From: Candidatus Binatia bacterium
GTDB lineage: Bacteria > Desulfobacterota > Binatia > HRBIN30 > BPIQ01
Length of the DNA stretch: 64,000 nucleotides
Assembly (NCBI GenBank): GCA_026004195.1
Contig: BPIQ01000003.1
Location: 310,001-374,000, forward strand
Direction: 5' to 3'
A program made the position numbers and the translations under genes. The notes beneath the pieces are model-generated. The model saw nothing but the letters and a program-made list of their open reading frames with translations. It was not told the DNA's origin and did no database searches. Shown one piece after another: positions 9,288-29,315 of the stretch (the stretch's first letter is position 1; each line of letters starts with the position of its first letter).

Positions 9288-9470
9288 AGCGCTCGCCCGG
9301 GCGAGTACCGGAGATGCGGGCGAAAACCAAGCGGGAGGTGCATCATGGAAGATGCGGGAAAAGGGCATGCGGGCAGGGTGCCCGAGCGTGGACACGTCAC
9401 GAAGAACGCGCAGAGCGGAGCCGAGAAGAGGGGGAGTCCCGAGAGGGGCGCGGCGGGAGAGGAGGGCACG

Positions 9471-10556
9471 ATGGCCGTGGAAAGCATCCGGGATCGCGTG
9501 AGCAGCGGCGACGGTAACCGACAGCGCGCCGTCGAGCTGGCCGTGAGCCAGATCGAGCGCCAGTTCGGCAAGGGCGCCATCATGAAACTCGGCGAGGAGG
9601 CCGCGGTAGGGGAGATTCCGGTCGTCTCGACCGGTTCTCTCGGTCTCGATCTCGCCCTCGGCGTGGGCGGTCTCCCGCGGGGGCGCGTGGTGGAGATCTA
9701 CGGGCCCGAATCCTCCGGAAAGACGACGCTCGCGCTCCACGCCGTCGCCGAAGCGCAGAAGCAGGGAGGCATCTGCGTTTTCATCGACGCCGAGCACGCC
9801 CTCGACGTCTCCTACGCGAAAAAGCTCGGGGTGAAGACCGAGGACCTCCTCATCTCGCAGCCCGACTACGGCGAGCAGGCGCTCGAGATCGCCGAGACGC
9901 TCGTCCGGAGCGGCGCCATCGACGTCATGGTCATCGACTCGGTCGCGGCGCTGGTTCCCAGATCCGAGCTCGAGGGAGAGATGGGCGAGCCGCAGATGGG
10001 GCTCCAGGCCCGCCTCATGTCGCAGGCGCTCCGGAAGCTCACGGCCACCATTTCGCGCTCGCGCACGATCGTGATTTTCATCAACCAGATCCGGATGAAG
10101 ATCGGCGTCATGTTCGGAAACCCGGAGACGACGACGGGAGGCAACGCGCTCAAGTTCTACGCCTCCTGCCGCCTCGACATCCGGCGGGTGGGCGCGATCA
10201 AGCAGGGCGACCAGGTCATCGGCAGCCGCACCAAGGTACGCGTCGTGAAAAACAAGGTCGCCCCGCCCTTCAAGGAAGCGGAATTCGACATCCTCTACGG
10301 GACGGGTATTTCCCGCGAGGGAGAGCTCGTCGACCTCGGAGCGCAGTACGGGATCCTCGAGAAGAGCGGTGCCTGGTACAGTTTCGACGGGGAAAGGATC
10401 GGCCAGGGACGGGAAAATGCCAAGGAATACCTCGCCGAGCACCCGGAAATTGCCCGAGCCATCGAGGAGAAGCTCCGGGCACGATTCGGGCTAGGAAAGC
10501 CCGCGGACGGGACCGGAGAGAAGGTCGCAAAGGGCGAAATCCGGCGCAGCAAATAG
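9471..10556 (+). CDS. recA: Recombinase RecA
   Basis: 361 residues. Walker [10 protein letters not shown], Walker [11 protein letters not shown], the L1 region ([17 protein letters not shown]) and L2 ([20 protein letters not shown]) are all present, as is the polymerisation segment KGAIMKLG. It forms the strand-exchange filament on single-stranded DNA and triggers LexA cleavage where LexA exists. ATG 9471 is chosen: GGAGGG lies 6-11 bases upstream and the product has the normal RecA length. An in-frame ATG at 9345 would add 42 residues rich in Gly, Arg and Glu unlike RecA. The C-terminal tail is basic rather than acidic ([11 protein letters not shown]), which is mildly unusual. Confidence 0.97.
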
Positions 10557-21272: not shown

Positions 21273-21479
21273 ATGCGTACCACGCTCGATCTTCCCGAGG
21301 ACCTCGTGGAAGAGGCCCGTCGACTCCTGGGTTTCAAATCCAAAACCGACACCGTCATCCTTTCCCTCCGCGAACTCGTGCGCCGGCGCCGGATCGAAGA
21401 GCTCAAGGAGCTCGCGGGCAAGGTTCGCCTCGACATCGACCTGCCGAAATCCAGGCGACGGCCGCGAAAGGGCCGGTGA
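21273..21479 (+). CDS. vapB: VapB-type antitoxin
   Basis: 68 residues. MRTTLDLPEDLVEEARRLLG is the N-terminal ribbon-helix-helix pattern of VapB/DUF2191 antitoxins (a DNA-binding dimer that represses its own operon), followed by a basic C-terminal tail that would wrap the toxin. It overlaps vapC by four bases (GTGA). Upstream in-frame codons to 21225 are not needed and do not resemble the family. Confidence 0.85.
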   Translation: MRTTLDLPEDLVEEARRLLGFKSKTDTVILSLRELVRRRRIEELKELAGKVRLDIDLPKSRRRPRKGR

Positions 21480-21865
21480 TCGTCGTCGACACTTCGGTCT
21501 GGATCGCCTTCTTCCGGGGAGCGGACTCGCGTCTCGTGGGACATCTCCGCGATCTCCTCGACCGGGACGACGTGCTTCTCGCCGCCCCCGTGCGCCTCGA
21601 GCTGCTCTCCGGCGCTCCGCGCCGAGACTACGGCAGGCTTGACCGGCTGCTCACGGCCCTCCCGGTGGCGTACCCGACCGAGAAAACCTGGGAGAGGCTC
21701 GACGGCTGGGTCCGGAAAACCGTGGAGGCCGGCGAGAGGTTCGGCTTCGCGGATCTGCTGATCGCCGCCCTGGCGGCCGACGAGAAAGCGGCTGTCTGGT
21801 CCCTCGATCGGGATTTCCGGCGGCTCGGTCGACTCGGTTTCGTCACGCTCCACACGCCCTCCTGA
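21476..21865 (+). CDS. vapC: VapC-type PIN-domain ribonuclease toxin
   Basis: 129 residues. The PIN active site is complete: Asp5 in VVDTSVW, Glu42 in RLELLSG, Asp93 in GFADLLIA, and Asp111/Asp113 near SLDRDF. VapC toxins cleave tRNA or rRNA and are held inactive by VapB. GTG start overlaps the vapB stop. The gene ends 45 bases before the NurA-HerA-Mre11-Rad50 operon on the same strand; the operon has its own promoter candidate, so co-transcription is possible but not required. Confidence 0.92.
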   Translation: MIVVDTSVWIAFFRGADSRLVGHLRDLLDRDDVLLAAPVRLELLSGAPRRDYGRLDRLLTALPVAYPTEKTWERLDGWVRKTVEAGERFGFADLLIAALAADEKAAVWSLDRDFRRLGRLGFVTLHTPS

Positions 21866-21910: not shown

Positions 21911-22909
21911 GTGTTCGGGGAGTTCGACGTCCGGATCGATCCTTGGGAAAGCCCCTACGGCGGCGAAGTTCCGTTCGACCCGGCCGTCGAAGAAAAAGCG
22001 GAAGACGTCGATCTCGGGGTCGAAGTCCCCCCCGACCGCTGGGCGCCCCTCTCCCCCGGGGCGACGCCCGTTTTCGCGACCGTCTTTTTCGTCGACGGCG
22101 TACGGCGCATCGACGCGCGGATCCTCGTCCGGCGGGGCGACGACATGGCCCACGGCGCTTTCGGGAGCTACGCCGTAGGCGCCGTCGTTTGCGAGAACGG
22201 ACGGGCCGCCTTCGGCGACGTGCACACGGGTCGGGTGGTGGTGACGGCCTCCGGCACGCTTTTTCCCGAGGTCGTTCGCGTGGCACCGAATCTCGTCTAC
22301 CGCCCCCTCGCCGTCGCGGACTCGGATCCCGACGCACCGCTTCGCGGAATCCAGGAGGAAATGAGACGGGCCGAGGAGAGGGCGGCACGCGAGCTCGCCG
22401 ACCGCGAGGGTTCGCTCGTGGTCGCGGACGGGCCGTTGACCTTCGAGGAGCCGGTACGCGGAGCCGCCGTGGGAATGGTGAAGCGGCTCTTCCAGCTCTA
22501 CCTGCCCGCCGAAAAAGTCCCCCTCCTCCGCCGACTCCCCCCGTCCTCTCGCACTCCCCTTTTCGCCCTCCGCTCGACTCGCCGCTTCGCCCGCTACAGC
22601 TGGTTTTTGCGCCTCGCCCCCCCACAGCCGATCGACTCGGAACTTTCGGGCCTCGTCCGCCTCGAGGTGTCGGAGTCCGTGGGAGCCGAGCGAGCACGGG
22701 ACCTCGCGGACGCGACGACACACCTGCTGCCCCGCTTCGTCTCCGGCCGGGCCCGGGATCCGCGGTCGCCGCAGAACCTGGTCCCCATCTCGGCGCTCGA
22801 GGGCGAGCTCCGGCGTCGCCTCGGCGACGCCCGGCTCCTCAGGCGGAGAATCGAGGAGCTTTTGCTCGAGGCGAGAAACTCCGGCAAAAGGGAGGAACGC
22901 CGAACGTGA
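21911..22909 (+). CDS. nurA: NurA-domain nuclease
   Basis: 332 residues. FFVDGVRR (Asp62) and VVADGPL (Asp173), separated by the Glu/Ala-rich helix EEMRRAEERAARELAD, fit the two Asp-containing motifs of the NurA RNase H-like nuclease fold; the C-terminal third contains SGLVRLEV, as NurA proteins do. NurA degrades the 5' strand at DNA ends in complex with the HerA translocase. The identification is strengthened by the overlapping HerA gene next to it and by Mre11 and Rad50 after that. GTG start with GGGAGGG upstream. I rank divergence from archaeal NurA as high, so an HHpred-type comparison would be needed for proof. Confidence 0.75.
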   Translation: MFGEFDVRIDPWESPYGGEVPFDPAVEEKAEDVDLGVEVPPDRWAPLSPGATPVFATVFFVDGVRRIDARILVRRGDDMAHGAFGSYAVGAVVCENGRAAFGDVHTGRVVVTASGTLFPEVVRVAPNLVYRPLAVADSDPDAPLRGIQEEMRRAEERAARELADREGSLVVADGPLTFEEPVRGAAVGMVKRLFQLYLPAEKVPLLRRLPPSSRTPLFALRSTRRFARYSWFLRLAPPQPIDSELSGLVRLEVSESVGAERARDLADATTHLLPRFVSGRARDPRSPQNLVPISALEGELRRRLGDARLLRRRIEELLLEARNSGKREERRT

Positions 22910-24579
22910 AAGAACCCACCAGGGAAGTTGCGGGACTGGTTCTCGGGTCGATGGACGCGACGCCGCTCGAGTTCTGGGTCGGCGTCGAGGAAGGCAAGCG
23001 GATCCAGCTCGACGACCTCGTCGTCGTGGAAAGCGCGATCCCGGGCGGCGAGCGCGTCCGCTTTTTCGGGATCGTCGATCTCGTCCGAAAACGCTACGAA
23101 GGCGCCCCCTTCGACACGGACGCCTTTCGCGCCTCGCGCGGCGTCCTCCCGGTGGACGTGTCCTACGCCGCCCACGTGCAGGTGACACGGATCGAACCCG
23201 AAATCTTCGTCCCCCCTCACCCCGGAGACCCGGCCGAGGTGGTGCGCGGCGAGCGCTTCGCCCGCGCCCTCTACTTCGACCGGATGGAGCGGCGCTTCCC
23301 GGCGGGCCTCACCCGGACGGGCGAGCCCGTGTACGCCAACCTCGATTTTCTCGACGGCACGCACGGCGCCCACCTCTCGGTGAGCGGGATCTCGGGGGTG
23401 GCGACGAAGACCTCCTACGCCACCTTCCTTCTCTTCTCGATCTTCCACTCGGGCGTTCTCGGCGCCGACGCTTCCGCGACCCGTGCGCTCGTCTTCAACG
23501 TGAAGGGCGAAGACCTTCTCTGGCTCGACCGCCCCAACGCCCGCCTCGACGAAACGAGCCGGGCCGAGTACGCGAAGCTCGGCCTCCCCCCGACGCCTTT
23601 CCAGAGCGTGGCCCTTTACGCCCCGGTCCACCGCGGCTCGAAGGTTCCCATGCCCGCGACGGGAGGGCGCCAGGAAGGCGTAGAACCCTACGTGTGGACG
23701 CTGCGGGAATTCGCCCGGGAACGGATGCTCCGCTTCGCCTTCGCCGAGGCCGAGGACGCGCGGGCGCAGATTTCCTTCGTGATCCAGCGGGTCGAACGCG
23801 TGCTCGAAGAGGCGGCGAAGGAAGGACCGGAAGACGACCCCGGTCTCGAGCTCGGGGGAAAACGGATGGCCTCGTTCTCGGACCTGGTCGACCTCCTCGA
23901 CACGGAATTCCTCGAGAGCGTCGTCCCCCAGATGGTCCAGGGCACGCTCGGAGCCTTCCGCCGGAGACTCCACGCCGCCGCCTCGAGAATGGGACACCTG
24001 GTCCAGGGGGAACCCTGGGCGGTGGGCCGGCAAATCTCCTGGGACTCCCAGCAGGTCACGGTCGTCGACATCCACACGCTCCACTCCACGGCGCAGATGT
24101 TCGTGGTCGGCGTGCTGCTCAAGCGGATGATGGAAGAAAAAGAACGGCGCGGGACGGCGAAGCCGCTCACTTTCGTCCTCCTCGACGAGCTCAACAAGTA
24201 CGCGCCGCGAGAGGGCTGGAGCCCCATCCAGGACGTGCTGCTCGACATCGCCGAGCGGGGCCGGTCGCTCGGTGTCTCGCTCTTCGGCGCGCAACAGACG
24301 GCGAGCGAAGTGGAACGCCGGGTGTTCGCCAACGCGTCGGTCAAGGTGGTGGGGCGCCTCGACGCCGCCGAAGCCGAGCGCAGCGAGTACGGATTTCTCA
24401 CACGTGTGGCACGGCTCCGGGCCACCATGCTCCCGCCCGGAAGCATGATCGTCTCCCAGCCCCAGATCCCCACCCCCGTCCTCCTCCGCTTCCCGTTCCC
24501 GGCCTGGGCGACCCGCCGGGCCGAGGCGCTCGAACCCGACGCGCCCGACCCCTTCGAGGGCTTCGACGAGAACCGATGA
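22906..24579 (+). CDS. herA: HerA-type DNA translocase ATPase
   Basis: 557 residues. An N-terminal HAS-barrel-like region (about 5-110) is followed by a FtsK/HerA ATPase. The P-loop region is SGISGVATKTSY with Lys168; the Gly that normally precedes this Lys is replaced by Thr. Walker B is VLLDELNK (Asp427, Glu428), and an arginine-rich segment (DIAERGRSLGVS, FGAQQTASEVERR) follows as in HerA. It should form a hexameric ring that pumps DNA to NurA. GTG start overlaps the NurA stop (GTGA), and its own stop overlaps the next ATG, so all are coupled. Confidence 0.88.
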   Translation: MKEPTREVAGLVLGSMDATPLEFWVGVEEGKRIQLDDLVVVESAIPGGERVRFFGIVDLVRKRYEGAPFDTDAFRASRGVLPVDVSYAAHVQVTRIEPEIFVPPHPGDPAEVVRGERFARALYFDRMERRFPAGLTRTGEPVYANLDFLDGTHGAHLSVSGISGVATKTSYATFLLFSIFHSGVLGADASATRALVFNVKGEDLLWLDRPNARLDETSRAEYAKLGLPPTPFQSVALYAPVHRGSKVPMPATGGRQEGVEPYVWTLREFARERMLRFAFAEAEDARAQISFVIQRVERVLEEAAKEGPEDDPGLELGGKRMASFSDLVDLLDTEFLESVVPQMVQGTLGAFRRRLHAAASRMGHLVQGEPWAVGRQISWDSQQVTVVDIHTLHSTAQMFVVGVLLKRMMEEKERRGTAKPLTFVLLDELNKYAPREGWSPIQDVLLDIAERGRSLGVSLFGAQQTASEVERRVFANASVKVVGRLDAAEAERSEYGFLTRVARLRATMLPPGSMIVSQPQIPTPVLLRFPFPAWATRRAEALEPDAPDPFEGFDENR

Positions 24580-25742
24580 GGATCGCCCACACGAGCGACT
24601 GGCACGCGGGACGCATCTGGAAAAACATCCAGCGCATCGACGAGCTCGCCGCGGTGCTGGACCACCTCGCGCGGTTTCTGGAGAGCGAAAAGGCGGACCT
24701 GCTTCTCGTCTCCGGCGACGTGTTCGACAGCGGGGCGCCTTCCGCGGAAGCCGAACGGCTCGTCTTCGAGTTCCTCAAGCGCACCGGGCAGGCGGGCACA
24801 CGCTCGGTCGTCGTCGCGGGAAACCACGATCATCCGGCCCGCCTCGACGCCTGGGGGACGCTCGCCGAGCTCGTGGGCGTCCGGGTCGTGGGCCTTCCCC
24901 GGCGCGCCGAGAAGGGCGGCGTGATCCGGCTCACGACCCGGTCCGGCGAGAGCGCCACCGTCGCCGCGCTTCCCTTCGCGCCCGCCCATCGCCTGGTCTC
25001 GGCGCTCGAGCTCGCGCGGGACGAAACACTCGCCAAGCAGCGTTACGCGGACGGGTTCCGCCGCATGGTGGAAGCGCTTTCCGCGGAGTTCCGGGCCGAT
25101 ACGGTCAACCTTCTCGTCTGCCACACCCACCTCGAGGGAGCCGTCTTCTCCGGCTCCGAGCGGCAGGTGCACCTCGGAGACGAATGGGCCGCGGCACCCC
25201 AGGCACTCCCCCACCGTGCCCACTACGTGGCCCTCGGACACATCCACCGGCCTCAGCGCGTCCCCGGCGCGCCCGCCCACGCCGAGTACGCCGGCTCGCC
25301 GCTCCAGCTCGACTTCGGGGAAGAGGGGGAGGCGAAAAGTTTCGTGTGGATCGAAGCCTCGCCCGGCGTCCCGGCGCGCGTCGAGAGGATCCCGTACGAG
25401 GGAGGCAAGGAGCTCGAGACCGTGCGCACCACGCTCGAGGATCTCCCGAACATCGCCGACCGGGCGCGCGCCGACCGCTGGCTTCGGGTGGTCCTCTCGC
25501 TTCCCGGCCGAATCCCCGACGCGAGCCGCCGCGTCCGGGAGCTTCTCCCGAACGCGCTCGTCGTACAGGTCGAGCTGCCCGAAGAAGAGCGGGAGGAAAC
25601 CGAGCCGGTTCGCCGGGACGCGAGGCCGGACGCCCTCTACCGGGAGTACTTCCGGAAAGCCCACGGACACGAACCGCCGGCCGAGCTCGTGGAGGCCTTC
25701 GCGAGCCTCTACGAGGGGGAGCTGAGCGAGGAAACCAGCTGA
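24576..25742 (+). CDS. sbcD: Mre11/SbcD-type DNA repair exonuclease
   Basis: 388 residues with the complete calcineurin-like phosphoesterase site: Asp8 and His10 in SDWHAGR, SGDVFDSG, AGNHDHP, CHTHLEG and LGHIHRPQ. The C-terminal third (after about residue 290) is the capping and Rad50-binding part. Working with Rad50, it opens hairpins and processes DNA ends with Mn2+-dependent 3'-5' exonuclease and endonuclease activity. The ATG overlaps the HerA stop and only 6 bases separate it from rad50. Confidence 0.95.
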   Translation: MRIAHTSDWHAGRIWKNIQRIDELAAVLDHLARFLESEKADLLLVSGDVFDSGAPSAEAERLVFEFLKRTGQAGTRSVVVAGNHDHPARLDAWGTLAELVGVRVVGLPRRAEKGGVIRLTTRSGESATVAALPFAPAHRLVSALELARDETLAKQRYADGFRRMVEALSAEFRADTVNLLVCHTHLEGAVFSGSERQVHLGDEWAAAPQALPHRAHYVALGHIHRPQRVPGAPAHAEYAGSPLQLDFGEEGEAKSFVWIEASPGVPARVERIPYEGGKELETVRTTLEDLPNIADRARADRWLRVVLSLPGRIPDASRRVRELLPNALVVQVELPEEEREETEPVRRDARPDALYREYFRKAHGHEPPAELVEAFASLYEGELSEETS

Positions 25743-25748
25743 CGACCC

Positions 25749-28700
25749 ATGCGTCCCCTTCGCCTCGCCGTCGAAGGCTTCACCTGTTTCAAGCGGAGAC
25801 AGGAGGTCGACTTTTCCGACCTCGACCTCTTCGTCGTTTCGGGCCCCACGGGAGCCGGGAAGTCGAGCCTCCTCGACGCCATGATCTTCGCCCTCTACGG
25901 GCGCGTCCCGCGCATGGGGGCACGCGGCCTCTTCGAGCTCGTCTCCCACGGGGCGGACTCCATGTCCGTACAGCTCGACTTCACGGCCCGAGGCCGGACC
26001 TACCGGATCGCGCGCCGCGTCCGCAGGTCGGGACGGAGCCAGGCCGAGCTCGAGGAGCTCCTCGACGGAAAGAGAGCGCCGATCGCAGGGAGCGTCCGCG
26101 AAGTCGACACGCACGTGCAGCGCATTCTCGGCCTCCGCTACGACGCTTTCACGCAGGCCGTCGTCCTCCCGCAGGGGGAGTTCCACCGGTTTCTCAAGAG
26201 CGAGCCCCGGGATCGCCGGGAGATTCTCCGCGACCTCCTCCGCCTCCAGATTTACGAGCGCATGCGGCAGCGGGCCGTGGAGCAGGCCAACGCGGCGCGT
26301 CTCGAGGTGCAGAACCGCGAGAGCCGCCTCGCCGAGGAGTACGCGGGCGCCGACGAGACGATGCTCGGGCGGAAAAAGCGCGAGCTCGAGGAGCTGCGCG
26401 CCCGGGCGGAAGAAAAGCGGCTCGTGCGGGACCGAAAGCGCGAGGAACTCGAAGCCGTGCAGGACCGTCACGAAAAGACGCGGGAGCTCGAAAAAGTCCG
26501 CCAGGAGCGCTCCGAGCTTCTCGGGCAGGAGGAGGAGATACGGGAGCGCAGGAAAGAGCTCGAGCTCGCCCGCAAGGCAAGAGAGGTCGAACCGGTCCGC
26601 CGAAGCACGGAGGCACTCGAGACACGTGCCCGGACGGCGCGGGAGCGCGCCGTCGAAATGCGAACGGAACTCGAGAAGCTCGAGAAGTCGGCCGCCGAGG
26701 CGCGCGAGGCTCTCGCGTGCCGCGAGGCCGAAGCCGAGCGAATTCCCTCCCTCCGCCGGCGGATCCCGGAGCTCGGCGCCGCCGAACGGACACTCGAACA
26801 GCTCGAGAGTGCGAGAAAAAGGCTGACAGAAGCGGAACGGGAGCGGACCCGACGGGAGAAGGAGGCCGAACAGGCGAAAAAAGAGGAAGAAAAGCTCTCC
26901 GAGCGCGCGGCCGAGCTCGAAGCCCTCGTCGCGAAGTGCCGGAAGGAAGTCGAGGGGCTCGGCTATTCCCCGGAACTCGACGAAGCGCTCGAACGGCTCA
27001 GGGAGCCCGCTCTCGAGCTTCGGCGCAAACGGCAGGATCTCGCACGCTACGCCGGGGAAATCGAAAAACGCCGCCGGGAATACGAGACCGCGCGCTCCGC
27101 ACGAGAGCGCGCCGAAGCGCTGTGGAAGGCGGCCGCCGAAGCCGTCGAGCGCGCCGAGGGCGAGCTCGCGCGGGCCGAAGCGCGACGTCGCGAGGCCGAG
27201 CGGACCTCCGCTGCCGCCGTCCTGCGGGAAAATCTCGAAGAGGGAAAACCCTGCCCCGTCTGCGAGCAGGACGTCACCCGACTTCCGCCTCCGCTTCCCG
27301 CTCCCGAGCTCGAGACGGCGCGTCTCGAAGAGCGGCGGGCCGCGGAAGCGCTCCGCGAGGCGCGGGCCGCCGTCGAGTCGGCCCGCGCCGAAAAAGAGTC
27401 GGCCCTGGCCGAAGAACGCGCGGCGACCGAACGGCTCGAGGAATCGCGCCGAGCACGCTCGGAGCTCGAAGCGGACATCCGTCTCGCCGAAGAGCGGCTA
27501 TCGGGAGAAGCGCCCCCGCCCGTCCACGCGGAAAGGGAAGCCACCGTGGAAGAGAAGATCCTGGCGCTCGCCTCGCGCCTCGCCGCGCTCCGCCGCAAGT
27601 TCCGGGAAGCCGAGGAGAAACGGCGCGGAGCCGAGACCGAGCTCGCGAAAGTGCGCGCGAAGCGCGAGGGAGCAGCGACCCGAAAATCCGACCTCGCGGC
27701 GCGTCTCCGAGAGGCGGAGCGGCGGCTCGAAGACTTCCGCCACGAGGTGCGAGAGCTCGAGGAACGTCTCCGCGAGGTTTCGCCCGAGGGCAACCCTCGC
27801 CAGGAACGCGAGCGGATCGAGTCGGAAATCGCACGCCTCGAGAAAGCTCTCGAGGAGGCCCGGCGCCGGGACCGAAAGGCGGAGAGAGACGCCGCCGCCG
27901 CGCGCGAAAAGACACTCGAGGCCGAGCGAAGCGCCGAGCGGGCCGAAGCCGAGGCACGGGAGGCTCGGCGGGATTTCGAAGAGGCTCTGCGGGCCCGGGG
28001 GTTCACGACACCCGACGACCTCCGTCGCGCGTTCCGGGCGGACGAGGAGATGGCGCGGACCGAAAAAACGATCCGCGAGTGGGAAGAGAGCCGCGCGGCC
28101 GTCGAACGCCGCCTCCGCGAGCTCGAAAACGACCTGCGGGGACGTACGGCGAGCGACGAAGAACTCCAGGGCGCGAAAAAGGCTCTCGAAACCGCCGAGC
28201 GCGAACACGAGGAAATCCTTCGTGCCGAGTCGAGGGCCGAGACCGAGCTCCGCGACCTCGAAGAAAGGGTCGCCACGGCCGGTCGACTCCGTGAAGAGCT
28301 CGAGCGTCACAGGACCGTGTACGAGCGCTACCGCCTTCTCGCCGAGGACCTGAAGAGCGACGCCTTCCAGGCCTTCGTGCTCGAGGAAACGTTCCGGTCC
28401 CTCGTCCGAGGCGCCTCCGCCAGGGTTCGCGAGCTCAGCGGCCGCTACACGTTCGAGTTCCGCGACGACGCCTTCTACGTGGTCGACCACGACAACGCCC
28501 GGGAGGAGCGAAGCACGGACACGCTCAGCGGTGGAGAGACCTTCCTGGCCTCCCTCGCGCTCGCGCTCGAACTCAGCGAGCAGGTGCAGCGAGCGGCGGG
28601 CGCCGTGCAGCTCGACAGCCTCTTCGTCGACGAAGGCTTCGGTACGCTCGACCCCGAGACGCTGGACACGGTCGCCTCGGCGATCGAATCGCTCCGCGTG

Positions 28701-28820
28701 GGCGGGCGGATGGTCGGCATCGTCACCCACATCCCCGAGCTCACGGCCCGGCTGCCGCAGAGAATTCGCGTCGAGAAACGCCCCGAGGGATCGAGGGTCC
28801 GGGTCGAGCGCGAGGACTGA
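25749..28820 (+). CDS. sbcC: Rad50/SbcC-type SMC ATPase
   Basis: 1023 residues. Head parts: Walker A GPTGAGKSS (Lys38), Q-loop PQGEFHRFL, signature LSGGETFLAS (from residue 926) and Walker B LFVDEGFGTLD (Asp961, Glu962). Two very long coiled coils flank a zinc hook CPVC (Cys502, Cys505) in the exact middle, which joins two Rad50 molecules. It clamps DNA and controls Mre11. The coiled-coil parts are extremely rich in Glu, Arg and Ala, which makes several other frames open. Last gene of the operon; the convergent sixA gene ends 12 bases away. Confidence 0.97.
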   Translation: MRPLRLAVEGFTCFKRRQEVDFSDLDLFVVSGPTGAGKSSLLDAMIFALYGRVPRMGARGLFELVSHGADSMSVQLDFTARGRTYRIARRVRRSGRSQAELEELLDGKRAPIAGSVREVDTHVQRILGLRYDAFTQAVVLPQGEFHRFLKSEPRDRREILRDLLRLQIYERMRQRAVEQANAARLEVQNRESRLAEEYAGADETMLGRKKRELEELRARAEEKRLVRDRKREELEAVQDRHEKTRELEKVRQERSELLGQEEEIRERRKELELARKAREVEPVRRSTEALETRARTARERAVEMRTELEKLEKSAAEAREALACREAEAERIPSLRRRIPELGAAERTLEQLESARKRLTEAERERTRREKEAEQAKKEEEKLSERAAELEALVAKCRKEVEGLGYSPELDEALERLREPALELRRKRQDLARYAGEIEKRRREYETARSARERAEALWKAAAEAVERAEGELARAEARRREAERTSAAAVLRENLEEGKPCPVCEQDVTRLPPPLPAPELETARLEERRAAEALREARAAVESARAEKESALAEERAATERLEESRRARSELEADIRLAEERLSGEAPPPVHAEREATVEEKILALASRLAALRRKFREAEEKRRGAETELAKVRAKREGAATRKSDLAARLREAERRLEDFRHEVRELEERLREVSPEGNPRQERERIESEIARLEKALEEARRRDRKAERDAAAAREKTLEAERSAERAEAEAREARRDFEEALRARGFTTPDDLRRAFRADEEMARTEKTIREWEESRAAVERRLRELENDLRGRTASDEELQGAKKALETAEREHEEILRAESRAETELRDLEERVATAGRLREELERHRTVYERYRLLAEDLKSDAFQAFVLEETFRSLVRGASARVRELSGRYTFEFRDDAFYVVDHDNAREERSTDTLSGGETFLASLALALELSEQVQRAAGAVQLDSLFVDEGFGTLDPETLDTVASAIESLRVGGRMVGIVTHIPELTARLPQRIRVEKRPEGSRVRVERED

Positions 28821-28832
28821 AACGCGGCCGCG

Positions 28833-29315
28833 CTACCCCGCCGAAGCTTCCGAAAAAACCATCTCCGGCGTCACCAGCGCGACGACGACCCATCCCGCTC
28901 CTTCCCGCCCGAGCCCGACGAGCCCGCCCATGCGAAACCGGACGACCGGAGGCTCGCTGCGCCCCGCGACGAGAAGACTCGCGAGGCGAGAAAGGAACGG
29001 TAGGTGCCCGACGATCATCGAGGATTCTTCCGGTCTTTCCCCGAGCTCGCGGGCGAGGGGCTCCGGGTCGTCGTTCGGCGCGAGCCCCTCGCGCGACCGA
29101 ACCGCGCCCTCCAGAGAGAGCGCCCTCGCGAAAATCTCCGCCGTCTCCGCCGCCCGCCGCTTCCCGCTGTGGAGGATCTCGCGCGGCCGCACGAGGCTCG
29201 AGCGGGCGAAGAAGTCGGCGACCTTTTCGACCTCGGCCCGCCCCCGCGGCGTGAGCGGCCGCTCCGGATTTTCCCGCTCCGTCGTCGCTTCCCCGTGCTG
29301 GACCAGGTAGAGCAT
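28833..29315 (-). CDS. sixA: SixA-type phosphohistidine phosphatase
   Basis: 160 residues of the histidine phosphatase superfamily. The catalytic motif is VQHGEA near the N-terminus (RHG variant with Gln-His-Gly), and the second His is in VGHLPFL. SixA enzymes remove phosphate from phosphohistidine proteins, for example Hpt domains or the nitrogen phosphotransferase system. Replacement of the usual Arg before the catalytic His by Gln is unusual but occurs in SixA proteins. A hybrid kinase is encoded 13 kb away, but no direct link is visible. Confidence 0.85.
   Translation of the reverse strand: MLYLVQHGEATTERENPERPLTPRGRAEVEKVADFFARSSLVRPREILHSGKRRAAETAEIFARALSLEGAVRSREGLAPNDDPEPLARELGERPEESSMIVGHLPFLSRLASLLVAGRSEPPVVRFRMGGLVGLGREGAGWVVVALVTPEMVFSEASAG

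What the first reader, a model, noticed from the sequence alone, without database searches (positions are those of the whole stretch)
21911..28820. Archaeal-type NurA-HerA-Mre11-Rad50 operon in a bacterium
Four genes overlap or sit within 6 bases: NurA-domain nuclease, HerA translocase, Mre11/SbcD and Rad50/SbcC. In archaea these four proteins form the DNA-end resection set; in most bacteria only SbcCD is present and resection is done by RecBCD or AddAB. Their coupling in one unit suggests a complete alternative end-processing pathway feeding RecA, which is encoded 11 kb upstream. HerA-NurA pairs also occur in phage-defence systems, so a defence role is a competing explanation.
Basis: partly seen in the sequence, partly recalled or inferred. 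Interest (0 to 1): 0.75.

Follow-up and report, generated by a model that had tools for sequence, protein, structure and literature searches.

The report
Mobile four-gene DNA-end processing operon
A bacterium carries four adjoining genes for a machine that probably opens and chews DNA ends; the same set travels between unrelated bacteria and plasmids and in several of them sits beside anti-phage systems, so it looks like an optional extra rather than the cell's main DNA-repair route.

Summary
In detail: nurA-herA-sbcD-sbcC are intact and co-directional, with two 4-nt overlaps and a 6-nt gap. The NurA fold is supported by sequence and model, and published key residues of Deinococcus NurA and HerA are kept. 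But the set is not 'archaeal-type': NurA-HerA is the Deinococcus kind, and SbcD/SbcC match bacterial models best. It does not replace AddAB: the genome has two AddAB-like pairs, and 20 of 20 genomes with this HerA have a PDDEXK_1 nuclease of the AddB/RecB family. SbcC and SbcD occur only here in the genome. The genes travel together: the four-gene content recurs across phyla and on four plasmids, HerA and SbcD trees agree, and 0 of 14 same-order relatives have this HerA. Some relatives abut Wadjet I or II, a type I-G CRISPR locus, a GajA-like gene and probably Shango, but my control does not prove enrichment. Best reading: a horizontally spread accessory DNA-end processing and degradation cassette, leaning to defence. 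A bacterial precedent (Oceanithermus) is in print.

The parts
21273..21479 (+). vapB antitoxin (likely ATG at 21273; open frame from 21225); same strand, upstream neighbour, possibly co-transcribed
   Evidence: Pfam VapB_antitoxin E 8e-13; start inferred from sequence
21476..21865 (+). vapC PIN-domain toxin, ends 45 nt before nurA
   Evidence: Pfam PIN E 9e-15
21911..22909 (+). nurA: NurA-fold nuclease, 332 aa, GTG start
   Evidence: phmmer to D. radiodurans NurA 7f6d_H E 6e-27 and TM1739 E 2e-8; AF2 model mean pLDDT 85.6, Foldseek 7f6d_G E 2.7e-20, 2ygk (Sulfolobus NurA) E 4e-5; W12, D62, K191, R285 invariant in 13 of 13 aligned NurA
22906..24579 (+). herA: Deinococcus-type HerA ATPase/translocase, 557 aa, GTG start, overlaps nurA by 4 nt
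   Evidence: phmmer to D. radiodurans HerA 7f6d_B E 6e-149, residues 7-541; K168/T169, D203, D427/E428, R435, R453 invariant in 12 of 12 aligned HerA
24576..25742 (+). sbcD (Mre11 family), 388 aa, overlaps herA by 4 nt; the only SbcD found in the genome
   Evidence: TIGR00619 173.4 bits, over cut-off; single genome hit; phosphoesterase motifs
25749..28820 (+). sbcC (Rad50 family), 1023 aa, 6 nt after sbcD; the only full-length SbcC found in the genome
   Evidence: TIGR00618 316.7 bits over the whole model, below the 478.5-bit cut-off; one full-length genome hit, the other hit is 32.8 bits over 51 positions; Walker A at residue 32, CPVC zinc hook at 502, LSGGE at 926

Best explanation
The operon encodes one DNA-end processing machine that is accessory and mobile, not the cell's main resection route. 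Proposed mechanism: the SbcC-SbcD (Rad50-Mre11) complex finds double-strand ends, hairpins or blocked ends and opens them with SbcD's nuclease. The hexameric HerA ring then loads on the opened duplex and translocates by ATP hydrolysis, feeding DNA into the NurA dimer on its HAS-barrel face, and NurA degrades the 5' strand or both strands. It acts beside two AddAB-like enzyme pairs. Its use is more likely clean-up or destruction of aberrant and invading linear DNA than supplying RecA with 3' tails. Shown here: the four intact genes, NurA fold and key residues, the sole SbcCD, the coexistence with AddAB-like genes, joint inheritance, lateral spread, and the neighbourhoods. Inferred: complex formation with SbcCD, order of action, polarity, and biological use.
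For: Fold and residues: read against PMC9960219 (sections read): NurA D53/K201/R309 map to D62/K191/R285; HerA K175/T176, D220, D487/E488, R495, R513, R552 map to K168/T169, D203, D427/E428, R435, R453, R492. Coupling: content is kept while order changes; most copies are nurA-herA-sbcD-sbcC, the Streptomyces plasmid and Nonomuraea are herA-sbcD-sbcC-nurA. Not a replacement for AddAB. Mobile unit: HerA and SbcD trees put the window with an Acidobacteria record and other copies outside the main Binatia group; one clade of the Binatia rows is rejected (HerA, 13 rows, p 0.001; SbcD, 12 rows, p 0.004; named after the tree was seen); 0 of 14 same-order genomes have this HerA at E<=1e-20 and 0 of the 10 examined a convincing SbcD; plasmid copies. 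Defence-leaning: Wadjet I 18 nt downstream and HTH plus IrrE-like genes upstream in L049; Wadjet II and a CapP-like protease on the Streptomyces plasmid; nested in a type I-G CRISPR-cas locus in L065; GajA-like gene about 400 nt from nurA in L048. Literature: deleting nurA and herA made D. radiodurans about 10-fold more UV/MMC resistant (PMC9960219, section read); T. kodakarensis HerA-NurA degrades both strands, with an antiviral role proposed (PMC12977600, abstract and passages).
Against: No defence system was found beside the window's own copy, only VapBC; of 14 flanking ORFs examined the others named are radical SAM, GFA, SixA, MlaC, MlaA, GST-like, T2SSE, DUF2889 and AurF, and three have no family. 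In one Binatia family the operon has the same downstream metabolic neighbours in 5 of 5 genomes and the same upstream one in 4 of 5 (families from L053 only), as a housekeeping locus would. PADLOC control: 108 ORFs from 11 arbitrary regions gave 18 families at E<=1e-30 against 91 in 74 cassette-flank ORFs, some of which I already knew to be defence genes; families overlap on single genes and control hits cannot be placed, so enrichment is not established. SbcCD is the only copy in the genome. Loss of the HerA homologue HepA in T. thermophilus severely lowers UV resistance (PMC5448004, passages), nurA and herA mutants of D. radiodurans have lower intermolecular recombination (PMC4663267, passages), and herA/nurA are reported essential in Sulfolobus islandicus (PMC4351679, title): all favour repair. 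No empty site was found. No experiment seen tests SbcCD binding to HerA in bacteria.
Confidence: 0.5

Rival explanations
1. Housekeeping DNA repair: the operon is the genome's SbcCD with a dedicated HerA-NurA helper that trims ends SbcCD has opened (replication-born hairpins, protein-blocked ends), with no role in defence.
For: Only SbcCD in the genome; the 12 best-scoring of 17 Binatia SbcD all have HerA next to them; stable neighbours in one family; archaeal Rad50, Mre11 and HerA co-precipitate (PMC2288612, passages); HepA loss lowers UV resistance in T. thermophilus; lower recombination in D. radiodurans herA and nurA mutants.
Against: Patchy and laterally spread, absent from 14 of 14 same-order relatives; plasmid copies; several relatives adjoin defence systems; joint loss of nurA and herA raises UV/MMC resistance in Deinococcus.
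Confidence: 0.32
2. One reading: a complete alternative resection pathway that feeds RecA in place of RecBCD/AddAB.
For: All four components present and intact; RecA at 9345-10556; D. radiodurans NurA-HerA makes 3' tails in vitro (PMC9960219 abstract).
Against: Two AddAB-like pairs in the genome (model scores below the equivalog cut-offs, and one AddA-like gene may be split) and an AddB/RecB-family nuclease domain in 20 of 20 genomes with this HerA. RecA 11 kb away is not operon linkage.
Confidence: 0.1
3. A plasmid- or element-maintenance function: the cassette protects or processes ends of mobile DNA (transfer intermediates, linear replicons) and the chromosomal copy is a remnant of such an element.
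For: Copies on a conjugative, a mobilizable and a linear plasmid; NurA-HerA in Marinitoga camini virus 1; VapBC pair next to nurA in the window.
Against: All four genes intact in the window with key residues kept; no relaxase, integrase or transposase among the 14 flanking ORFs examined; many chromosomal copies.
Confidence: 0.05

Closest known systems
NurA-HerA complex of Deinococcus radiodurans (PDB 7f6d, 7wrw, 7wrx)
   Same: Same NurA and HerA families (phmmer E 6e-27 and 6e-149), the same atypical Walker A (GVATKTS), catalytic and DNA-contact residues kept (R154 is not)
   Different: In the window sbcD and sbcC complete the operon and AddAB-like genes coexist; passages seen say Deinococcus lacks RecBCD or RecBCD/AddAB
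nurA-hepA-sbcD-sbcC of Oceanithermus profundus (PMC5448004, passages read)
   Same: Same four-gene bacterial architecture with bacterial SbcD/SbcC downstream of the HerA homologue
   Different: Reported for one genus, with SbcCD thought recruited there; here the set is shared across several phyla and on plasmids. Sequences were not compared here
Archaeal herA-mre11-rad50-nurA cluster
   Same: Same four activities and linked genes; in two Actinobacteria copies nurA comes last (that this is the archaeal order is recalled)
   Different: Archaeal NurA matches only by fold (2ygk E 4e-5); Sulfolobus HerA 4d2i not among the sequence matches at E<=1; bacterial SbcD/SbcC models outscore archaeal ones (202.5 against 46.6 bits; 316.7 against 158.2 bits)
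HerA-based anti-phage systems (NF042943/NF042944; Sir2-HerA, DUF4297-HerA)
   Same: HerA-superfamily ring ATPase paired with a nuclease
   Different: Scores 18.6 and 15.9 bits against cut-offs of 800 and 850; the partner is NurA and SbcCD is added

Membership tests
Bacterial (Deinococcus-type) NurA-HerA | NurA RNase H-like nuclease fold with catalytic Asp, Lys and Arg (D53, K201, R309 in DrNurA) | tested here: met
   Foldseek 7f6d_G E 2.7e-20; D62, K191, R285 invariant in 13 of 13
Bacterial (Deinococcus-type) NurA-HerA | HerA with Walker A K175/T176, Walker B D487/E488 and arginines R495, R513, R552 | tested here: met
   K168/T169, D427/E428, R435, R453 invariant in 12 of 12; R492 in 11 of 12, mapped through the alignment. 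DrHerA R154 falls on D147 and is not kept
Bacterial (Deinococcus-type) NurA-HerA | Physical NurA-HerA complex with translocation-dependent nuclease activity | not testable with these tools
   Needs purified proteins; the complex was not modelled
SbcC-SbcD (Rad50-Mre11) | SbcD over model cut-off with phosphoesterase motifs | tested here: met
   TIGR00619 173.4 bits against 77.65; DWH, GDVFD, GNHD, GHIH
SbcC-SbcD (Rad50-Mre11) | SbcC with Walker A, zinc hook CxxC, signature and Walker B over its whole length | tested here: met
   Motifs at residues 32, 502, 926, 956; TIGR00618 1-1043/1043 but 316.7 bits, below the 478.5 cut-off, which only 1 of 14 control genomes passes
Archaeal HerA-NurA-Mre11-Rad50 set | Archaeal-type HerA and Mre11/Rad50 sequences | tested here: not met
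   Deinococcus HerA is the only strong solved match (organisms of three weak ones not given); bacterial SbcD/SbcC models outscore the archaeal ones. No tree with archaeal sequences was made
Replacement for RecBCD/AddAB | No RecBCD/AddAB/AdnAB in the genome | tested here: not met
   Two AddAB-like pairs in own genome (RecC and RecD not searched); 20 of 20 genomes with this HerA have PDDEXK_1 over cut-off, as do 12 of 14 control genomes
Known HerA anti-phage systems | HerA over the curated cut-off of NF042943/NF042944 and a Sir2 or DUF4297 partner | tested here: not met
   18.6 and 15.9 bits against 800 and 850; partner is NurA
Defence-island gene set | Significant enrichment of defence genes next to the cassette | tested here: inconclusive
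   Several clear cases, but the control scan cannot be assigned to regions

The most novel reading that the evidence does not exclude
NurA-HerA-SbcCD is an undescribed mobile immune system: a RecBCD-like end-degrading machine in which SbcCD supplies end recognition and opening and HerA-NurA supplies processive destruction of invading linear or hairpin-ended DNA. A plasmid branch carries its own damage-responsive switch (sigma-70-like factor, small protein, IrrE/CapP-like protease) in front of the four genes.
Probability: 0.33. Interest if true: 0.8.

Novelty: new member of a known kind. Interest (0 to 1): 0.5.

Why it matters
In archaea it is disputed whether HerA-NurA makes 3' tails for recombination or destroys foreign DNA. 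Bacteria that carry HerA-NurA together with SbcCD and also AddAB-like enzymes separate the two ideas: resection is already covered, so a phenotype of the cassette would show what else it does. Copies on plasmids and beside Wadjet and CRISPR loci make a direct phage or plasmid challenge in laboratory strains possible. If it is a defence system, proteins now named as DNA-repair SbcD, SbcC or NurA in such loci would need a second look.

Tried and rejected
Pfam NurA against the genome and Pfam on the proteins missed NurA and HerA; not taken as absence because phmmer and the fold search found them. NurA as a single query is a weak probe: 1 of 148 phylum genomes. PADLOC on the four window proteins gave partial or family-level hits (HerA: mad8 E 8e-10; SbcC: LmuB E 2.8e-25), not a system. 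A pattern scan gave no promoter-like site and no more terminator-like sites than shuffles. An empty site in same-order relatives was sought through MlaA: MlaA and MlaC are adjacent in 5 of 5 relatives, SixA and the operon have no match in the stretches taken, and the rest is not syntenic, so the insertion point is unresolved. Phage records hold only distant HerA (3 records, none covering 80% of the query). The Fisher test printed used a guessed control count and is not used. The AU tests were set after the tree was seen, so their p-values are optimistic. Constantinesco 2004 and Iyer 2004 could not be read; archaeal gene order rests on recall and on other papers. 'Not in print' goes only as far as searches (25 of 33 papers listed; 10 of 10; 13 of 13; 0 papers; 15 of 31; 1 of 1), judged from titles and abstract starts, plus passages of six papers. 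Labels of metagenome bins (Acidobacteria, Bacillota, Alphaproteobacteria) are the records' own and may be wrong, as the Klebsiella label of L061 is.
Full report
WHAT IS THERE. Four co-directional genes occupy 21911-28820: nurA (GTG, 332 aa), herA (GTG, 557 aa), sbcD (ATG, 388 aa) and sbcC (ATG, 1023 aa), separated by -4, -4 and +6 nt. A VapB-VapC pair (21273-21865) lies on the same strand 45 nt upstream; a SixA-like gene (28833-29315) follows on the other strand. RecA is at 9345-10556. Other flanking genes named are radical SAM, GFA, MlaC, MlaA, GST-like, T2SSE, DUF2889 and AurF. ARAGORN found no tRNA in the window.

IDENTITY. Pfam's NurA model finds nothing in the genome at E<=0.001 and Pfam finds no family in NurA or HerA. 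phmmer against solved structures links the 332-aa protein to D. radiodurans NurA (7f6d_H, E 6e-27) and T. maritima TM1739 (E 2e-8), and the 557-aa protein to D. radiodurans HerA (7f6d_B, E 6e-149, residues 7-541). Three further HerA chains match at E 0.018-0.24, their organisms not given; Sulfolobus 4d2i is not among the matches. An AlphaFold2 model of NurA from 13 sequences (mean pLDDT 85.6, pTM 0.85) matches 7f6d_G (E 2.7e-20), 1zup_A (E 8e-16) and, weakly, archaeal NurA 2ygk (E 4e-5) and 3tal (E 4e-4).

KEY RESIDUES. PMC9960219 (sections 5, 12 and 13 read) names D53, K201 and R309 of DrNurA, and K175/T176, D220, D487/E488, R495, R513 and R552 of DrHerA, as catalytic, ATP-site or DNA-contact residues. 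Through the alignments these map to D62, K191, R285 and to K168/T169, D203, D427/E428, R435, R453, R492; all are present. The NurA three are invariant in 13 of 13, the HerA ones in 12 of 12 except R492 in 11 of 12. DrHerA R154, thought to bind the gamma-phosphate, falls on D147 here and is not kept. SbcD matches TIGR00619 over cut-off. SbcC matches TIGR00618 end to end but below its cut-off, which only 1 of 14 control genomes passes. Both score better with bacterial than with archaeal Mre11/Rad50 models (202.5 against 46.6 bits; 316.7 against 158.2 bits). SbcC has Walker A, the CPVC zinc hook and LSGGE; SbcD has the phosphoesterase motifs.

GENOME CONTEXT. These are the only full SbcC and SbcD found in the genome. 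AddAB-like enzymes are present twice: C2 has an AddA/RecB-like protein of 1180 aa next to an AddB-like one of 1081 aa; C1 has an AddA-like gene (possibly split between frames) and an AddB-like gene. Scores lie below the equivalog cut-offs, hence 'like'. In 20 of 20 genomes with this HerA (the window's and 19 others) a PDDEXK_1 domain scores over the cut-off. In 19 of 20 the best match lies in a frame of at least 997 codons, the size of AddB; in the oversized bin G412 it lies in one of 614. The domain is common (12 of 14 control genomes), so this shows non-replacement, not association. RecC and RecD were not searched. AddAB together with nurA/hepA and sbcCD is already reported for Thermus (PMC13140390, passages).

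TAXON. The window genome is in the same class as genomes whose contig lengths equal those of records titled Candidatus Binatia (G423:C1 = OY282457.1; G417:C15 = L053). The class is therefore taken as Binatia.

DISTRIBUTION AND LINKAGE. A genome-contig scan with two short HerA patterns found 19 loci, a lower bound. NurA is upstream of HerA in 16 of 17 with at least 750 bp upstream (miss: L064), SbcD follows within 220 nt in 16 of 16, and SbcC follows in 14 of 15 (miss: L060). Spacing varies: SbcC lies 908 nt after SbcD in L061 and about 4 kb after it in L147. Among 78 Binatia genomes examined for SbcD, 17 match at E<=2e-29. The 12 best (E<=2e-50) all have HerA adjacent; of the other 5, 4 lack it and L084 has too little upstream sequence to judge. 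Identity to the window's SbcD alone (34-58% against 30-35%) does not separate the two sets; the tree does. Over the 148 held genomes of the class, 20 have HerA at E<=1e-20: the window's, 3 in family f4 and 16 in f113; G360 (f4) and G480 (f113) carry more distant HerA (32% and 34%). None of 14 same-order genomes has it, and none of the 10 of them examined has a convincing SbcD (one weak match, E 1e-6). In the sampled phylum of the Acidobacteria record 10 of 396 genomes match; the 4 best have all four genes adjacent, the fifth (57% identical) has HerA alone, and the other 5 belong to a different HerA group.

SPREAD AS A UNIT. HerA and SbcD trees agree: window, L049 (Acidobacteria SCN 69-37), L050, L052, f4 Binatia (and L048 for HerA) form one group (96/93 and 100/99) and f113 Binatia another, with stand-alone Binatia SbcD outside. 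L049 is the window's sister in both, with modest support (83/67 and 85/93); by HerA identity L063, L051 and L048 are nearer (73-75% against 70%). Holding the Binatia rows together is rejected for HerA (13 rows, p-AU 0.001) and SbcD (12 rows, p-AU 0.004); grouping window plus f4 SbcD with stand-alone SbcD is weakly rejected (p 0.04). These groups were named after the tree was seen. Bin labels may be wrong, so no donor phylum is claimed.

PLASMIDS AND ORDER. Among 72,556 plasmid records six have a HerA match. Four plasmid neighbourhoods carry all four genes: Streptomyces sp. BB1-1-1 (linear), Sphaerospermopsis (conjugative), Aulosira (mobilizable) and Chlorohelix; in the last two the NurA match is weak (E about 1e-6). 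A fifth, an 11.85-Mb Nonomuraea record, is of chromosome size. The two Actinobacteria have herA-sbcD-sbcC-nurA, the others nurA-herA-sbcD-sbcC. Aulosira and Chlorohelix, whose HerA are 43% identical, share a seven-gene order: sigma-70-like factor, small protein, IrrE/M78 protease, nurA, herA, sbcD, sbcC. The proteases score best with PADLOC's CapP.

NEIGHBOURS. L049 has an HTH regulator and an IrrE-like gene (21.5 bits, just under Pfam's cut-off of 22) upstream, and 18 nt downstream Wadjet type I JetA, a JetB-sized ORF and JetC. The Streptomyces plasmid has Wadjet II JetA and JetB and a CapP-like protease. In L065 the cassette, partly broken, lies between cas7g/cas5g genes and a cas4-cas1 gene followed by a CRISPR array of about 73-nt spacing. 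L048 has a GajA-like gene about 400 nt from nurA. L133 has a type I REase-like and an HNH gene near and, by inference from three consecutive genes and the SngA/B/C hits, Shango. Against this, five f113 Binatia share MaoC-like and luciferase-like genes downstream (5 of 5) and a MaoC/FAS1-DH-like gene upstream (4 of 5, not L062) (families from L053), and the window has only VapBC. A rough control (74 flank ORFs against 108 ORFs from 11 arbitrary regions, out of 197 ORFs in 20 regions called) gave 91 against 18 PADLOC families at E<=1e-30. Families overlap, some flank genes were known beforehand, and control hits (HEC-01, ThsB, AriA, GajB, DinG and others) cannot be placed; I claim no significance.

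HOW IT MOST LIKELY WORKS. Inferred from the families: SbcCD opens ends, HerA translocates, NurA cuts. In Sulfolobus Rad50, Mre11 and HerA co-precipitate (PMC2288612, passages). The literature on function is split. D. radiodurans NurA-HerA makes 3' tails in vitro (PMC9960219 abstract) and its mutants have lower intermolecular recombination (PMC4663267, passages), and HepA loss lowers UV resistance in T. thermophilus (PMC5448004, passages). Yet the D. radiodurans double deletion is about 10-fold more UV/MMC resistant (section read), a T. thermophilus paper reports UV resistance on inactivating nurA and herA (title in a reference list), and T. kodakarensis HerA-NurA destroys both strands, its authors suggesting antiviral use (PMC12977600, abstract and passages). 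With AddAB-like enzymes present, lateral spread and these neighbours, I favour an accessory end-processing and degradation machine leaning to defence (0.5), with housekeeping repair as the main rival (0.32). In this revision the odds were lowered from 0.55 and the rival raised from 0.3 because the opposing mutant data are now counted.

KNOWN OR NEW. The four-gene bacterial architecture was noted for Oceanithermus profundus in 2017 (PMC5448004, passages), and a nurA-csm6-herA cluster tied to CRISPR arrays is reported for Pyrobaculum (passage in PMC12977600). The window's operon is therefore a new member of a known kind. The mobile character of the four-gene set, the changed gene order in Actinobacteria, the plasmid branch with an IrrE/sigma switch and the defence neighbours of bacterial copies did not appear in the titles and abstract starts listed by searches (two of which listed only part of their papers).

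Noticed in passing
L139:3879-11489; NurA-like/HerA-like pairs of the same group in L142, L141, L137, L140, L045: A second NurA-like/HerA-like pair directly follows a 1122-aa protein that is a type IIG restriction-methylase in L139 (PADLOC E 0) and is followed there by a DNA methylase-like protein. Looks like a restriction system with a HerA-NurA module; only L139's partners were classified.
   Followed up: partly
L143:8486-14564 and L144:7691-13544: NurA-like, HerA-like, an HSP90/gyrase-type ATPase and a B12/radical SAM protein in a row in two genomes (families from L143), with lower GC3 than their surroundings: a possible mobile system.
   Followed up: partly
L103:2618-11930 and L104:2841-12155: Plasmid-borne seven-gene set: sigma-70-like factor, small protein, IrrE/M78 protease, nurA, herA, sbcD, sbcC, shared by a cyanobacterium and a Chloroflexota.
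   Followed up: partly
L105:4921-7629 (Marinitoga camini virus 1): A virus carries a NurA-HerA pair; no SbcCD is annotated in the stretch seen.
   Followed up: no
L062:9031-10080: NurA only about 51% identical to those of sister Binatia although the adjoining HerA is 95-97% identical; its GC3 is lower (0.49). NurA looks exchanged on its own.
   Followed up: no
G000:C1:936488-940914 (L046): The AddA-like gene of the first AddAB pair has its helicase part in one frame and its nuclease part in another; a frameshift or a split gene. The second pair has both genes as long open frames.
   Followed up: no
Mislabelled record.
   Followed up: partly
window 21273-21865: VapBC toxin-antitoxin pair on the same strand 45 nt before nurA; may be co-transcribed or a mark of mobility.
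   Followed up: partly
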